Below, one piece after another: positions 1 through 64,000 of a stretch of DNA of 64,000 nucleotides. The notes under the pieces were generated by a model. The model had not been told where the DNA came from, did no database searches, and saw only the letters and a program-made list of their open reading frames with translations. Position 1 is the stretch's first letter. Each line of letters opens with the position of its first letter. This DNA is from an uncultured Bacteroidales bacterium. GTDB taxonomy: Bacteria > Bacteroidota > Bacteroidia > Bacteroidales > Paludibacteraceae. The position numbers and the translations under genes were made by a program. Where the stretch lies: positions 124,001 through 188,000 of the forward strand of contig ONEZ01000006.1 in assembly GCA_900316995.1 (NCBI GenBank), written 5' to 3'.

Positions 1-1950
1 CTCCTCCTTTACTACATCAATTTCTCTTTGATTATAATGATTCCTAATGTGTTTTCCTGGTGCCGTTTTTATAGCTAACATCACATCCTTTTTATCACTG
101 TTTTCTGTCATGATAAGTAATTGCCCTCCATAAAAACGTTGGTTGCAGAAGTTTATAATAGTAGGATGACAGCGGTAATGCTCCCGTAATAGGGTTTGCG
201 GCGCAGATGAAATTATGTTGCAAATAGATTGTAAAAAACTATTTGTCACGCAGTTATAATCCTTAGATACGTTGAATTCCTTGAATATGGCATCATATTT
301 TAAGATGTCATCATGTGTAGTTACGTTTGGAAGCTGCAATGTGTCTCCAACAATAACTGCATTCTTAGCACATGTTAGGGCTAATATTCCTGTGTCTATT
401 GAGACTTGAGATGCCTCATCCATAATGACATAGTCATATATTTGGTTGGGGATTGTTATTCTAGCTGAGAATGTCGTGCTTAGTATAACAGGGTATTCTT
501 TGCAAAATTTATACGAGTCTGAGACAATTTCTTTTACGCTGCTAATTAGCGACCTTTTTTTGTTGTTGTATTTGCGATGTAAAGCCCCCTTCAGTAGTGT
601 TAGTGAGCTTGATACTAATTTATTTGATAGTTCACTTGTGTTATATGAGTTTAGTTTTTTTTCTGTTCTTTCTATTGATGATGTGAGTTCCTGAAGACGT
701 GTTTTGTAATAGAGAGCTTGTAATTGAATGATTGTAGGTTGTAGGTCATGTATGTCAGCCGGAGGCTCAATTCCATAAAGATATTTCATTGAGAAATTCA
801 TCCATCGCCATTTGATATTATTTGTGATTTTCTTAAGGAACCCTGCGTTTTGGTGTTCATTGTTTTCTGCTGATGTATGATAGTACATCCACAATCTCAT
901 TAATTTCTTTGCTCTGACTTTACGTGTGAGAGTGTATAAATCCGGACTTATTTGATAATCTACTAGGAAATGTTGATGCTCAAGGTTTACAGTTGTTAGT
1001 TCCTGCTTGTATGAAGAGAGTGCTTCTTGTAATGCAAATGCCTTATCCAGCTTAATAAGTATAGATTTTATATCTTTTCCCTTTTTGTCTTTTTCTGCAT
1101 AAGTGATTCCCCAAGATTTTAATTCATCTGGAATAGGAGGCTGGTTAGCTATAAAATTCTCTTTGTTTTCTTTTTTCCCTAATGGAGCGATGAGAAAATC
1201 AAGGCCGTATTTTTTCATTTTCTCCAAAACATTTGCAGTTGCAGAATTGTTGTTGGAGACAATTATTACATTCTTACCCTGTAAGACAATGTTTGCAACA
1301 ATATTGAGAATAGTTTGGGTTTTTCCTGTTCCAGGAGGGCCTTGTATAATACTTATTTGGTTCTCAAAAGCTGCTTTAACTGCTTTCTTTTGGTTTGCAT
1401 TACATCCAAATGGGAAAATAAGATTAGGAACTATGTAAGTACGTGGTTTGTGTTTTTGTGGCGACAGGTACGGCGCAGCAGCTGTCTCATTATCAATGAA
1501 ATCAATATTATTGTAAATTGAAGAAAGAATTCCATCGCTGTCGTCACTTTTACCTAATTCATTTGTCTGCGATATTCGCTTAAGATACTCAAATATGTTG
1601 TTTGCAGCCTTGTCTTCAAGACATGATTCTTTTACAATAATGGAACCGTGTAAATAGTCTTTTGTAGAACCATTTGAGTATTTAATTCTCCAATGTGTCC
1701 GTTTCCCATGGCTAAAAGACATAAGGTCTGTTATGTTATACTTTTTACATCCATTGATGTATACTATGCAATGTTTAGGGTTATGCCATACTGCGTTCTG
1801 TAGAATTACTACGTCTGCAGGGTTATAGCGATAAAATATTCTGCCGTCAATGAATTTAACGGCATAGCTTCTATTATTCTCAAGATAAATTTTATCTATC
1901 TTGAGAGCTTTGGGCTCGCCCTTTATAATAATAAATTGGTTATTCGTCAT
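1..1950 (-). CDS. Superfamily 1 (DNA2/UPF1-like) helicase, C-terminus beyond window
   Basis: I translated this strand directly: 650 codons are open from an ATG at the right end to the window edge, so the C-terminus is missing. Walker A is GPPGTGKT at about residues 204-211. The Walker B region is MDEASQVS at about 510-517, motif III is VGDTLQLPN near 535, and REHYRCHP lies near 590. This set is typical of the AAA_11/AAA_12 helicases (COG1112 type). About 200 residues without a recognised domain precede the ATPase, and a helical insert splits the two RecA-like halves. Base composition is AT-rich compared with menA next door, consistent with transfer. In this family the C-terminus often carries a nuclease (PLD or Vsr-like), for example in Mokosh-type defence proteins, but that part is not visible here. 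The helicase call is firm; a defence role is inference. Confidence 0.85.
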   Translation of the reverse strand, partial: MTNNQFIIIKGEPKALKIDKIYLENNRSYAVKFIDGRIFYRYNPADVVILQNAVWHNPKHCIVYINGCKKYNITDLMSFSHGKRTHWRIKYSNGSTKDYLHGSIIVKESCLEDKAANNIFEYLKRISQTNELGKSDDSDGILSSIYNNIDFIDNETAAAPYLSPQKHKPRTYIVPNLIFPFGCNANQKKAVKAAFENQISIIQGPPGTGKTQTILNIVANIVLQGKNVIIVSNNNSATANVLEKMKKYGLDFLIAPLGKKENKENFIANQPPIPDELKSWGITYAEKDKKGKDIKSILIKLDKAFALQEALSSYKQELTTVNLEHQHFLVDYQISPDLYTLTRKVRAKKLMRLWMYYHTSAENNEHQNAGFLKKITNNIKWRWMNFSMKYLYGIEPPADIHDLQPTIIQLQALYYKTRLQELTSSIERTEKKLNSYNTSELSNKLVSSSLTLLKGALHRKYNNKKRSLISSVKEIVSDSYKFCKEYPVILSTTFSARITIPNQIYDYVIMDEASQVSIDTGILALTCAKNAVIVGDTLQLPNVTTHDDILKYDAIFKEFNVSKDYNCVTNSFLQSICNIISSAPQTLLREHYRCHPTIINFCNQRFYGGQLLIMTENSDKKDVMLAIKTAPGKHIRNHYNQREIDVVKEE

Positions 1951-59847: not shown

Positions 59848-61200
59848 ATGGCAGATGTAATAAAACTTAAAAAAGGACTTGACCTGCGCCTTGAAGGTAC
59901 AGCGCAGCAAGAGTTCGGTCAGGCATCTCAGGGTGAACTCATTGGGTTTAATCCCAGTGATTTCTACGGGATTGTGCCTAAGCCTGCGTTAAAACCAGGT
60001 GATGCCGTAAAGGTTGGAACTGTTTTGTTCTACAACAAGAAACAGCCTGACGTGAAGATTGTCAGTCCTGTGAGCGGCACACTTGAGGCTATTAACCGTG
60101 GCGACAAGAGAAAAATTCTGAGCATCGTGGTAAAGAACGATTTTAAAGGTACTCAGGAGAAACTGGAGAAACTTAACATTAACGGCAGCGTTGATGAGAT
60201 TAAAAAAGCTCTCAGCGATGCAGGTATGCTCGCTTTCATAAAGCAGCGTCCGTATGATGTTATAGCAAATCCGGCTGACACCCCTAAGTCTATCTTTATT
60301 TCAGCGTTTGATGTTGCGCCTCTTGCTCCTGATTATGATTTCCTTTTCAAGGATTCTCAGTCAGATTTCCAAAACGGTGTGGATGTGCTGTCAAAAATAG
60401 CTCCTGTTTTTGTGGGGGTTAAGAACGGTACCAAGAGTTTTGCAAATGTAAAGAACGCCACTGTTACTGCGTTTGAGGGCAAGTACCCCGCAAGTAATGT
60501 GGGCGTGCATATTAACCACCTTGACCCTATCAATAAGGGCGAGATAGTTTGGACAATAGGTGCGCAGGAGGTTGTTTACATAGGCCGCTACGCATCTAAA
60601 GGCATGCTTGATTTTAGCAAGAATGTTGCTTTGACAGGTTCTGAGGCTTCTGCAAGAGTTTACTTTAAAATGATTCTTGGCCAGCAGCTCTGCCAGGTTC
60701 TTGACGGTAACGTAAGCAAAGGCTCTAAGGCCACTGTGATTTCAGGTAATCCGTTGTCTGGCGTTGAGGTTTCTGCAAAAGATTTCCTGTCCCCGTTTGT
60801 AAACCAGATAACCGTGATGAAGAACGGTGCTGACACTCACGAGTTCATGGGCTGGATTATGCCACGCTTCAAGACATTCTCAAACAGTAACTCCGTATGC
60901 TCTACATTCTTATCAAAACTTTGTTCTAAGTTTAAGTTTGATGTTGACACCCGCATACTTGGTGGTAAACGTAATATGATTATGTCTGGTGAGTATGACA
61001 AGGTACTGCCAATGGATATATATGGTGAATTCCTTATAAAGGCTATCATTGCGTTTGACATTGATAAGATGGAGGCGCTTGGCATATATGAGGTGGCTCC
61101 AGAGGATTTTGCGGCTGCAGAGTGTGTGTGCTCGTCAAAAATGGAGCTTCAGCAGATTGTAAGAGAAGGTCTTGACAAACTGCAAAAAGAAATGTGTTAA
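59848..61200 (+). CDS. nqrA: Na+-translocating NADH:quinone reductase subunit A
   Basis: 450 residues, the usual length. It begins MADVIKLKKGLDLRLEGTAQ, with a typical lipoyl/RnfC-like N-terminal barrel (KIVSPVSGTLEAINRGDKRK) and HEFMGWIMPRFKTFS toward the C-terminus. Soluble cytoplasmic subunit of the six-subunit sodium pump. First gene of nqrABCDE(F) with 18 bp to nqrB. Confidence 0.96.
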   Translation: MADVIKLKKGLDLRLEGTAQQEFGQASQGELIGFNPSDFYGIVPKPALKPGDAVKVGTVLFYNKKQPDVKIVSPVSGTLEAINRGDKRKILSIVVKNDFKGTQEKLEKLNINGSVDEIKKALSDAGMLAFIKQRPYDVIANPADTPKSIFISAFDVAPLAPDYDFLFKDSQSDFQNGVDVLSKIAPVFVGVKNGTKSFANVKNATVTAFEGKYPASNVGVHINHLDPINKGEIVWTIGAQEVVYIGRYASKGMLDFSKNVALTGSEASARVYFKMILGQQLCQVLDGNVSKGSKATVISGNPLSGVEVSAKDFLSPFVNQITVMKNGADTHEFMGWIMPRFKTFSNSNSVCSTFLSKLCSKFKFDVDTRILGGKRNMIMSGEYDKVLPMDIYGEFLIKAIIAFDIDKMEALGIYEVAPEDFAAAECVCSSKMELQQIVREGLDKLQKEMC

Positions 61201-61218: not shown

Positions 61219-62430
61219 ATGAAAGCGTTAAGAAACTTTATCGATAAGATTAAGCCTACCTTCTCTGAAGGGGGTAAATTATCGATGTTTCGTTCGGTAT
61301 TTGACGGATTTGAAACATTCCTTTTTGTACCTAACGAGACTGCTAAGCCAAGAGGCGCCCATATTCATGATGCGGTTGACAGCAAGCGTATTATGATTAT
61401 GGTGGTTATTGCTTTGATGCCTGCACTGCTTTTTGGCATGTACAATGTGGGCTATCAGCACTATCTTGCAATAGGTCAGGCTGCTGTTGCGGGCTTCTGG
61501 CCAATGTTCTGGTACGGTTTCCTTGCCGTGCTTCCTAAAATCATAGTGACTTACATAGTAGGTCTTGGTATTGAGTTTACCGTGGCACAGTGGAAGGGTG
61601 AAGAAATTCACGAGGGATTCCTTGTCACAGGTATTATTCTGCCTATGGTTGTTCCTGTTGACTGTCCGCTCTGGATTCTTGCAATTGCCACTGCGTTTGC
61701 AGTTATATTCGCTAAAGAGATATTCGGCGGAACAGGTATGAATATAGTGAACGTGGCTCTTATAGCACGTGCGTTTTTGTTCTTTGCCTATCCTTCCAAG
61801 ATGTCAGGTGACTCGGTATGGATTAGAAAAGAGGATATTTGCGGCCTTGGTGCTGGTAATGTGATAGATGGTTTCTCTGGTGCCACACCGCTTGGTCAGG
61901 TTGCCACTTCTGCCACATCGCATCCTGTTATCACAGATGCCGCAGGCAATGCAATCTCTATATGGGATGCCATTTGTGGTTTTATTCCTGGCTCAATAGG
62001 TGAGACAAGTGTAATTGCCATAGCTTTAGGAGCTATCCTTCTTCTTTGCACTGGTATTGCAAGCTGGAAAACAATGTGCTCTGTATTTGTAGGTGGTGCG
62101 CTTACTGCATTCCTGTTTAATATTAGCGGCTCTGAAAACGCAGTTGCTAACCTGCCTTGGTACTATCATCTTGTACTTGGTGGTTTCTGCTTCGGTGCTG
62201 TGTTTATGGCTACAGATCCTGTGACATCGGCTCGTACAGAGGCTGGTAAGTACATCTATGGTTTCCTCATCGGTGTTATGGCAATTCTTATCAGAGTGCT
62301 TAACCCAGGATATCCGGAAGGTATGATGCTTGCAATTCTGCTTATGAACGTATGCGCACCTCTTATTGACTATTGCGTGGTTCAAGTGAATATTTCTAAA
62401 CGTCTTAAACGTGCTAATAAGAAAGGGTGA
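61219..62430 (+). CDS. nqrB: NQR subunit B (flavin-bearing membrane subunit)
   Basis: 403 residues, about ten membrane helices. [11 protein letters not shown] holds the Thr that ApbE flavinylates with FMN (consensus SGAT). It also binds riboflavin and the quinone and contributes to the sodium path. nqrC starts 5 bp later. Confidence 0.97.
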
Positions 62431-62435
62431 TAGAT

Positions 62436-63266
62436 ATGGCTGCAAAAGAATTTAAATGTAAAGTTTGTGGTTATATCCACAAAGGCTCTGCGGCTCCTGA
62501 AAAGTGCCCTGTATGCCAGGCTCCTGCATCGGAGTTTGAAATGATAAAGAAAGGTTTTGACACAAACGGCAACGTATATACAATGGTTTACGCCACTGTA
62601 GTGGTTGTCATTGTGGCATTCCTGCTTGCATTTATATCTGGTGCATTAAAGTCAAGACAAGATGATAATGTGATTCTTGACAAGAAAAAGCAGATCCTAA
62701 GTTCTCTTAACGTTAATGTTAAGGAGTGTGCGGATCCAGCTGCCAAATATGCTGAGTGTGTTAAGGCTGATATTGTTGTTAATGCCTCCGGCGATGTTAT
62801 AGCTGAGAATGGAGGATTTGACATCAATGTGGCTAATGAGAACTCAAAACCTCTTGAAGAACGTCAACTTCCACTCTATATATGTGAGATTGACGGTGCA
62901 AGGAAATATGTGGTGCCAATGCGTGGCGCAGGTCTTTGGGGACCAATCTGGGGCTATATAGCTCTTGATGATGACAAGTCAACCGTGTTTGGCGTATATT
63001 TCAGTCATGAGAGTGAGACTCCTGGTCTTGGTGCTGAGATTACACAGCCTAAGTTCCAGAACCAGTTCCGTAATCAGGAAGACCCAAAACACATCTTCCG
63101 TGACGGCAAGTTTACATCAATAGAGGTGGTTAAACCAGGTCAGACAGCTGAGGATGCTGATTATGTTGACGGTATTTCTGGTGGTACCATGACATCACAG
63201 GGTGTTAACGCCATGCTTAAGCAGGGTATTGGTCAGTATGTTGAATATTTTAATAAGGAGAAATAA
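62436..63266 (+). CDS. nqrC: NQR subunit C with N-terminal rubredoxin-like domain
   Basis: 276 residues. Residues 41-276 are an ordinary NqrC: one membrane helix (about 48-70), then the FMN domain with [11 protein letters not shown], where T251 is the expected flavinylated Thr. Residues 1-36 are an extra rubredoxin-like knuckle, [12 protein letters not shown] and [10 protein letters not shown], with Cys at 8, 11, 24 and 27 in C-x2-C-x12-C-x2-C order, very like the iron site at the end of rubrerythrin. The NqrC N-terminus is cytoplasmic, so the site should face the cytoplasm. The start is an ATG; a GTG three codons earlier overlaps the nqrB stop. The reading frame is continuous, so this is a true fusion. 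Confidence 0.93.
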
Positions 63267-63268
63267 CA

Positions 63269-63889
63269 ATGGGACTACTATCTAAGAAAAGCAAGGAGAC
63301 ATTTGTTACTCCTTTGTTGAATAACAACCCTATAACCATGCAGATTCTGGGTATCTGCTCCGCTCTTGCGGTAACCGCCAAGTTAGAGCCTGCCTTGGTA
63401 ATGGGTCTAAGCGTTACCATTATAGTGGCGCTGTCAAATGTGGTTATATCTCTTCTGCGTAACACAATACCAAGTCGTATAAGAATTATTGTACAATTGG
63501 TGGTAGTGGCTGCTCTTGTTACAATTGTTAGTCAGGTGCTTAAGGCCTTTGCCTACGATGTAAGCGTACAACTATCTGTGTATGTGGGTCTTATAATAAC
63601 CAACTGTATTCTTATGGGACGTTTGGAGGCGTTTGCCATGGGTAATGGTCCGTGGGAGTCTCTTCTTGACGGACTTGGAAACGGTTTTGGATATGCCATG
63701 ATTTTGGTTATTGTTGCGTTTATAAGAGAACTTTTAGGCTCTGGAGCATTGCTTGGTTATCAGGTTATACCACAGTCATTTTATGACATGGGATATTTGA
63801 ACTGCGGTCTTATGCTAATGCCTCCTATGGCTCTTATTATTATCGGCTGTATAATATGGGTTCAGCGTGCAAAGAATCCGGAACTATAA
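63269..63889 (+). CDS. nqrD: NQR subunit D
   Basis: 206 residues, six membrane helices. ILGICSALAVT (Cys30) and TNCILMGRLEAFAM hold the two Cys that with NqrE form the intramembrane [2Fe-2S] centre. 2 bp after nqrC. Confidence 0.97.
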   Translation: MGLLSKKSKETFVTPLLNNNPITMQILGICSALAVTAKLEPALVMGLSVTIIVALSNVVISLLRNTIPSRIRIIVQLVVVAALVTIVSQVLKAFAYDVSVQLSVYVGLIITNCILMGRLEAFAMGNGPWESLLDGLGNGFGYAMILVIVAFIRELLGSGALLGYQVIPQSFYDMGYLNCGLMLMPPMALIIIGCIIWVQRAKNPEL

Positions 63890-63918: not shown

Positions 63919-64000
63919 ATGGAAAATCTTTTAAGTCTTTTTGTCAGCTCTATTTTTGCCGACAATATGATTTTTGCATACTTCCTTGGAATGTGTTCGT
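63919..64000 (+). CDS. nqrE: NQR subunit E, cut by the window end
   Basis: Only 27 codons: MENLLSLFVSSIFADNMIFA then YFLGMCS, the conserved NqrE start including Cys26 of the shared iron-sulfur centre. The remainder and nqrF lie outside. Confidence 0.93.
   Translation, partial: MENLLSLFVSSIFADNMIFAYFLGMCS

What the first reader, a model, noticed from the sequence alone, without database searches (positions are those of the whole stretch)
62436..62550. Rubredoxin-like iron site fused to NqrC
The first ~36 residues of NqrC form a complete Cys4 rubredoxin/rubrerythrin-type knuckle ahead of the normal membrane helix and FMN domain. Described NqrC proteins, to my knowledge, begin just before the helix. 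Known topology puts this site in the cytoplasm. It could hand electrons between the sodium pump and a soluble partner (rubrerythrin, flavodiiron protein or NAD(P)H reductase), be a redox or zinc sensor, or only stabilise the complex. An electron branch to peroxide or oxygen reduction would be new for NQR.
Basis: partly seen in the sequence, partly recalled or inferred. Interest (0 to 1): 0.75.

Follow-up and report, generated by a model that had tools for sequence, protein, structure and literature searches.

The report
Sodium pump with a rubredoxin arm
One subunit (NqrC) of this bacterium's sodium-pumping respiratory enzyme carries an extra four-cysteine rubredoxin-like domain at its front end, seen in some of its relatives and, in the genomes tested, almost always together with the gene for reverse rubrerythrin, so the pump likely also passes electrons to that predicted peroxide-removing protein.

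Summary
nqrC (62436-63266, +) encodes a 276-aa NqrC with a complete short-spaced, rubrerythrin-type rubredoxin domain (Rbx, residues 6-35; Cys8, 11, 24, 27; PF21349, E 3e-14) ahead of the normal helix and FMN domain. It is no artefact: the fusion recurs in several Bacteroidales families and in an isolate chromosome, is under purifying selection, and comes and goes (at least 16 changes on a tree of 125 NqrC cores). My searches of the held library found no paper describing it.

Two results bear on function. (1) In 131 distinct NqrC Rbx domains none has the Asn or His that a paper links to the high potential of classical rubrerythrin; they resemble reverse rubrerythrin (revRbr). (2) Among 153 NqrC-bearing genomes, 45 of 46 fused have revRbr against 69 of 107 unfused. 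The link survives a tree-based model (p about 2e-4), though not independent pairs, and is absent for classical rubrerythrin and flavodiiron protein.

Best reading: a cytoplasmic side arm that would take electrons from NADH-reduced NqrF and hand them to revRbr for peroxide or oxygen removal. Metal, potential and electron transfer are untested. A structural metal site, an electron inlet, a sensor, or revRbr merely being the source of the domain remain possible.

The parts
62436..63266 (+). nqrC with N-terminal rubredoxin-like domain, 276 aa
   Evidence: ORF; TIGR01938 over its cut-off; PF04205 and PF21349
62451..62540 (+). Rbx domain (residues 6-35), Cys8/11/24/27, two CxxC pairs 12 residues apart
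   Evidence: PF21349 E 3.1e-14; rubrerythrin E 6.5e-9; 1b71 rmsd 1.3 A
62550..62570 (+). linker (residues 39-45) between the last Rbx strand and the helix, predicted cytoplasmic
   Evidence: no regular structure at 39-45, block pLDDT 77-88; fourth Cys through the conserved Tyr48 position spans 21-35 residues in 171 proteins measured (21 in the window)
62571..62651 (+). transmembrane helix region (residues 46-72) of NqrC
   Evidence: helix 46-90; aligned to V. cholerae NqrC residue 11 onward
62931..63227 (+). FMN_bind domain (residues 166-264), periplasmic in known NQR
   Evidence: Foldseek to 3lwx, TM 0.93 by target length
63186..63188 (+). Thr251, equivalent of V. cholerae NqrC Thr225 (covalent FMN)
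   Evidence: aligned; Thr225 role from PMC12174285 (passages)
59848..61200 (+). nqrA
   Evidence: TIGR01936 over its cut-off
61219..62430 (+). nqrB
   Evidence: TIGR01937 over its cut-off
63269..63889 (+). nqrD
   Evidence: TIGR01939 over its cut-off
63919..64000 (+). start of nqrE (cut by the window; the contig ends 452 bases further on, so nqrF is not seen here)
   Evidence: read; same N-terminus (MENLLSLFVSS) as a member of the NqrD/E cluster

Best explanation
This NqrC carries an added N-terminal four-cysteine rubredoxin-like domain that is predicted to hang in the cytoplasm and likely takes electrons from the NADH-reduced NqrF subunit and hands them to reverse rubrerythrin, which would reduce hydrogen peroxide or oxygen. 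Shown here: the domain, its predicted fold match, its conservation, its patchy spread, its lack of the residues linked to high potential, and its specific co-occurrence with reverse rubrerythrin. From established knowledge of V. cholerae NQR: NqrC hangs in the periplasm on one N-terminal helix, so its N-terminus faces the cytoplasm, where the mobile ferredoxin domain of NqrF swings. Inferred: iron as the metal, a potential near the -110 to +10 mV of comparable domains, reduction by NqrF, and docking to reverse rubrerythrin. The branch would let the cell spend NADH electrons on peroxide at the pump, before Na+ translocation, without needing a soluble rubredoxin.
For: Fusion with reverse rubrerythrin (revRbr): 45 of 46 fused against 69 of 107 unfused genomes (Fisher 3.5e-6). 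Pagel-type model on the NqrC tree: LR 17.15, p 1.9e-4 (6 against 4 rates) and LR 19.6, p 6e-4 (8 against 4); 0 of 60 data sets simulated under independence reach the 6-rate value. Controls on the same 153 genomes: classical rubrerythrin p 0.91 and 0.64, flavodiiron protein p 0.83 and 0.73. In the second set alone, 18 of 18 fused and 22 of 37 unfused have revRbr. Domain order of the two query proteins checked: L002 has PF21349 at 2-31 then PF02915 at 62-174 (reverse), L004 the other way round. Residue type: of 131 distinct NqrC Rbx domains 0 have Asn in CxNC and 0 have His at CxxCxH (124 have Val at the first place); revRbr Rbx alike (0 of 24 loci read), while the window genome's classical rubrerythrin has both. 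PMC6033852 (passages) reports that Asn and His were held responsible for the high potential of D. vulgaris rubrerythrin and gives -110 mV for a short-spaced Rd between an NADH-FAD module and a diiron site. PMC7482061 (passages) gives +10 and -10 mV for two revRbr, says revRbr need electron-transfer partners, and shows a foreign Rd domain plus NADH reductase serving. Constraint: pooled pN/pS 0.133 against 0.200 for the FMN part. Four fused genus-mates (G007, G131, G137, G141; 78-95% complete) show neither a PF00301 rubredoxin nor an FDP at the thresholds used, but have revRbr.
Against: No electron transfer, metal or potential was measured. Independent pairs alone do not reach significance (10 and 12 pairs on supported branches, median p 0.25), though on average 0.0-0.1 of them go the other way; in the family set alone 5 pairs decide nothing. 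The tree is that of NqrC, not of the species, and many genomes are incomplete MAGs. One fused genome (G057, 82% complete) shows no revRbr. 69 unfused genomes have revRbr, so the fusion is not needed for it. No column of NqrA-F changes together with the fusion in 13 independent pairs (P 0.66), so no adapted docking face was found. Fusion and soluble rubredoxin neither replace nor accompany one another (11 of 28 against 25 of 70); the window's genome itself has a rubredoxin. The link could arise because revRbr is the source of the domain.
Confidence: 0.45

Rival explanations
1. Structural or assembly role: the four Cys bind zinc (or iron) only to cap the cytoplasmic end of the mobile NqrC helix and stabilise the complex.
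For: Metal identity cannot be read from sequence; a diverged form with CxxCGQ keeps the four Cys but loses the CGY (L066, L068, L098).
Against: Unfused NQR of close relatives does without it (at least 16 changes on the tree); no other subunit column co-varies; the linker length varies (21-35 residues); a three-module form exists (P0011); it does not explain the specific revRbr link.
Confidence: 0.2
2. Source artefact: the domain was copied from a revRbr gene, so fusions arise only where revRbr exists; the link says where it came from, not what it works with.
For: The Rbx is of revRbr type; a model in which only the gain rate depends on revRbr already fits better (LR 7.7, p 0.005).
Against: NqrC Rbx domains group together apart from revRbr Rbx (2 changes on the quick tree; one clade not rejected, p-AU 0.66), which points to few captures rather than repeated local copying; only 35 columns and 51 rows, so weak.
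Confidence: 0.2
3. Electron inlet: a soluble reductant gives electrons to the Rbx, which feeds NqrD/E or NqrF, so that the pump runs on something other than NADH.
For: Same anatomy; a low-potential Rbx could in principle donate to menaquinone-linked centres (inference).
Against: In V. cholerae the NqrD/E cluster is reached on the cytoplasmic side by the NqrF ferredoxin domain (PMC10643135, passages), so the inlet would have to compete with it; potentials of comparable Rbx (-110 to +10 mV) make it a weak donor; the link is to an electron consumer (revRbr).
Confidence: 0.07
4. Redox or oxygen sensor: oxidation or metal loss at the Rbx gates NqrC movement and slows the pump under air.
For: The site sits at the end of the helix that moves in the cycle (PMC10643135, PMC10739449, passages).
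Against: No direct test available; no co-varying partner residues.
Confidence: 0.08

Closest known systems
NqrC of Na+-NQR (TIGR01938; V. cholerae 7xk3/8a1t, Parabacteroides distasonis 3lwx)
   Same: Operon place, helix, FMN_bind fold, FMN-attachment Thr, over the curated cut-off
   Different: About 40 extra N-terminal residues forming a Cys4 rubredoxin-like domain
Reverse rubrerythrin (N-terminal short Rd + diiron four-helix domain)
   Same: N-terminal Rbx of the same short-spaced, non-Asn/His type
   Different: No diiron four-helix domain; NqrC follows instead
Class F flavodiiron protein FdpF of C. difficile (PMC6033852, passages)
   Same: Short-spaced Rd domain tethered to an NADH-oxidising flavin chain
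   Different: Soluble single chain ending in its own diiron site; here the Rd sits on a membrane ion pump and the consumer would be a separate protein
E. coli flavorubredoxin with its NADH reductase (named in PMC6033852 and PMC7482061, passages)
   Same: Rd domain relays NADH electrons to a diiron centre
   Different: Canonical-size Rd, no ion pump

Membership tests
NqrC (Na+-NQR subunit C) | Over the curated nqrC cut-off | tested here: met
   TIGR01938 205 bits, cut-off 144
NqrC (Na+-NQR subunit C) | Lies between nqrB and nqrD in an nqr operon | tested here: met
NqrC (Na+-NQR subunit C) | Thr that carries FMN covalently | tested here: met
   Thr251 aligned to Thr225; the attachment itself is not testable here
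Rubrerythrin-type rubredoxin domain (PF21349) | Over the gathering score, four Cys in two CxxC pairs 12 residues apart | tested here: met
   52.5 bits, cut-off 26.5; the first motif has this spacing in 178 of 178 motif-bearing proteins
Rubrerythrin-type rubredoxin domain (PF21349) | Binds iron as Fe(SCys)4 | not testable with these tools
   needs the protein
Rubrerythrin / reverse rubrerythrin | Diiron four-helix domain in the same chain | tested here: not met
   no PF02915 or ferritin family among the matches; the rest of the chain is NqrC
High-potential classical rubrerythrin Rd site | Asn in the first CxNC and His after the second CxxC | tested here: not met
   Val10 and Ala29 in the window; Asn 0 of 131, His 0 of 131
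Electron donor of reverse rubrerythrin | Occurs with revRbr beyond shared ancestry | tested here: inconclusive
   rate model p 2e-4 to 6e-4 on the NqrC tree, but independent pairs too few to reach 0.05
Electron donor of reverse rubrerythrin | Reduces revRbr | not testable with these tools
   bench assay needed

The most novel reading that the evidence does not exclude
Na+-NQR in many Bacteroidales is a branch-point enzyme: through a rubredoxin side arm on NqrC it is also the membrane-bound NADH:reverse-rubrerythrin reductase, diverting electrons on the cytoplasmic side to peroxide and oxygen before they drive Na+ pumping, a detachable safety outlet that lineages gain and lose.
Probability: 0.4. 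Interest if true: 0.85.

Novelty: new variant of a known kind. Interest (0 to 1): 0.64.

Why it matters
PMC7482061 (passages) states that the physiological electron donors of revRbr in C. difficile, which has no rubredoxin gene, are unknown. A tethered rubredoxin on a respiratory pump names a concrete candidate donor that can be tested in Bacteroidales, and would add an oxygen-defence branch to an enzyme described as an NADH:quinone reductase. It would also show a modular way to plug a new redox site into NQR without visible change elsewhere in the complex.

Tried and rejected
Flavodiiron protein as the general partner: rejected; the window's genome and four fused genus-mates have no PF19583 match at E 1e-15 and there is no link overall. 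Classical rubrerythrin as the specific partner: no link. Replacement of soluble rubredoxin: no sign (only stand-alone frames under about 110 aa counted, 44 of the 55 genomes with a PF00301 match, two weak 60-aa ones included). A partner gene beside nqr: clustering of genes from 120 fetched loci shows, beyond the nqr genes, no cluster in more than 30 loci; the neighbours were not named or split by fusion state. Co-varying residues in NqrA-F: none (a first run, used a faulty NqrD sorter and only 4 pairs and is discarded). Decayed relics of the domain before unfused nqrC: none seen in the 9 loci printed; the stop-containing extensions are nqrB or intergenic read-through there. Assembly chimera: rejected (see observation check). 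Fusion outside Bacteroidales: 2 fused of 395 genomes in the phylum sample, both of the window's order (diverged forms could be missed); other phyla were not sampled, apart from a capped GTDB scan whose best 80 loci were all Bacteroidota by title.

Rows dropped before counts: of 102 family loci, G026, G035, G011 and G040 failed automatic reading (98 kept); by eye G011 is fused (added) and G026 unfused; G035 is a partial gene; G040 is split at contig ends, Rbx not readable. In one search, 22 duplicate rows and 3 unread loci (L017, L022, L130) were left out. G516 (fused, revRbr present) was searched but is not in the 153-row tree. revRbr Rbx was read in 24 of 30 loci. Presence lists were copied by hand into scripts. 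The 153 rows hold a few near-identical pairs, all within the family set and equal in both traits. The 17 pairs pooled for pN/pS are not independent.

Full report
Observation. The nqrC frame 62436-63266 reads without a stop from the rubredoxin-like domain into NqrC. Pfam finds PF21349 at residues 6-35 (E 3.1e-14) and FMN_bind at 166-264; NCBIfam finds nqrC over its cut-off at residues 44-273. The N-terminal 41 residues alone match rubrerythrins in the PDB, while solved NqrC chains align from residue 50 (V. cholerae) at the earliest. AlphaFold2 on a 91-row alignment gives mean pLDDT 94.8; Foldseek matches NqrC for the body (3lwx, TM 0.93 by target length) and rubrerythrin 1b71 for the N-terminus (1.3 A over 38 columns; E 7e-3, probability 1.00).

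Spread. Of 150 genomes drawn from the window's own family, 142 have some match. A script read NqrC in 98 of 102 fetched loci and found 28 fused; two more were read by eye, giving 29 fused of 100. Within the window's genus some genomes have the fusion (G000, G007, G131, G137, G141) and others do not (e.g. G082, G096, G123). A sample of 393 genomes of the order shows 8 fused in three families and a sample of 395 of the phylum shows 2, both in the same order; diverged forms may be missed at the thresholds used. Among 80 titled GTDB loci, 14 are fused: Paludibacteraceae, Prevotella/Prevotellaceae, Bacteroidaceae (with isolate Bacteroides sp. Marseille-P3684), Parabacteroides, Dysgonomonadaceae, Rikenellaceae (Tidjanibacter, Alistipes) and one unassigned Bacteroidales.

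Gain and loss. On a quick tree of 125 NqrC cores with the added domain cut off (39 fused), the fusion changes state at least 16 times, 11 of them forced by well-supported branches; shuffled labels need 33 on average. A tree of the 35-column Rbx (35 NqrC, 16 revRbr rows) keeps the two apart with two changes and does not reject one NqrC clade (p-AU 0.66). That fits few captures with many losses or transfers of nqrC, but has little power. No relic was seen upstream of the 9 unfused genes printed. One protein (P0011) carries three Rbx modules in a row.

Constraint. The 178 listed proteins with the motif all have the same spacing (the motif search itself asks for the Cys and allows 10-14 residues between the pairs), and a 37-row alignment has V10, G12, Y13, H15, G17, P21, P25, S32 and F34 invariant beside the Cys. 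Pooled over 17 close pairs, pN/pS is 0.133 for the Rbx, 0.227 for the helix, 0.248 for residues 73-150 and 0.200 for the FMN part. The domain therefore looks kept by selection where it is present.

Residue type. Published potentials of short rubredoxin sites span +281 mV (D. vulgaris rubrerythrin), +10/-10 mV (two revRbr) and -110 mV (FdpF, where the site lies between an NADH-FAD module and the diiron centre); one explanation given for the high values is an Asn and a His near the Cys pairs (PMC7482061 and PMC6033852, passages read). That these are the CxNC and CxxCxH places I take from the aligned D. vulgaris sequence and from recall. No NqrC Rbx (0 of 131 distinct) and no revRbr Rbx (0 of 24 loci) has either; the window genome's classical rubrerythrin has both. 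The NqrC Rbx is thus predicted to be of the lower-potential kind, which NqrF could reduce and which could reduce revRbr. This is inference.

Partner. The revRbr query (L002) has the Rbx first and the rubrerythrin domain second; the classical query (L004) the reverse. In the family set, revRbr occurs in 27 of 28 fused and 47 of 70 unfused genomes; soluble rubredoxin 11 of 28 and 25 of 70; FDP 16 of 28 and 51 of 70. In a second set, reached through titled loci and order genomes, revRbr occurs in 18 of 18 fused and 22 of 37 unfused. Joined (153 rows): 45 of 46 against 69 of 107. A Pagel-type two-trait model on the NqrC tree prefers dependence (p 1.9e-4 with 6 rates, 6e-4 with 8), and none of 60 data sets simulated under independence reaches the observed 6-rate ratio; classical rubrerythrin (43 of 46 against 94 of 107) and FDP (30 of 46 against 84 of 107) give nothing. 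Against this: independent pairs reach only a median p of 0.25, the tree is that of NqrC, many genomes are incomplete, and the source explanation is open. The window's genome has revRbr, a classical rubrerythrin and a rubredoxin, but no PF19583 match (the genome is 83% complete).

Mechanism. In V. cholerae NQR, electrons go NADH - FAD - 2Fe-2S (NqrF) - 2Fe-2S (NqrD/E) - FMN (NqrC) - FMN - riboflavin - quinone, and NqrF's ferredoxin domain swings on the cytoplasmic side (PMC10643135, PMC12174285, PMC10739449; passages). NqrC hangs in the periplasm on one N-terminal helix, so an N-terminal extension should lie in the cytoplasm. A Rbx on a linker there could be met by NqrF's ferredoxin domain and by soluble revRbr. 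The lack of co-varying residues in 13 independent pairs fits a loosely tethered module rather than a built-in subunit, and equally means that no docking evidence exists.

Literature. Searches of the held library for NqrC + rubredoxin and NqrC + rubrerythrin give one paper, a clostridial genome analysis in which the words occur apart; 'Na+-translocating NADH' + rubredoxin gives three, seen as a listing only; a search for fused FMN-binding and rubredoxin gives none. Term counts over the main texts of four Prevotella NQR papers and one review show no 'rubre', and the NQR evolution paper has no 'rubredoxin'; of all these I saw passages, not whole texts. Most subscription papers are not in that library.

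Verdict. A real, selected, recurrent new variant of NqrC. The electron-branch idea is refined to revRbr and gains support from co-occurrence, but remains untested at the bench.

Noticed in passing
P0011 (382 aa): NqrC relative with three tandem Rbx modules (Cys motifs at 8, 52, 120; three PF21349 stretches) before the helix; one cluster of 55 member sequences.
   Followed up: partly
P0196, P0189, P0208, P0157, P0185: Some fused NqrC carry a Cys-rich, in P0196 repetitive (CADCTKECKDGKK), C-terminal tail that would lie in the periplasm.
   Followed up: no
L066, L068 (7998-8726), L098 (7280-8125): Diverged N-terminal Cys4 domain with CxxCGQ in place of CGY in Prevotellaceae/Bacteroidaceae NqrC; its metal may differ.
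   Followed up: partly
P0148 (221 aa): A reverse rubrerythrin with two N-terminal Rbx modules.
   Followed up: no
P0152 (354 aa): Fused NqrC whose FMN domain breaks off into a SufBD core C-terminus (PF01458 at 179-313); probably a chimeric contig.
   Followed up: partly
L086 6069-7106, L093 3130-4122: Unfused NqrC frames of 345 and 330 aa in two Prevotellaceae MAGs; the extra length was not examined.
   Followed up: no
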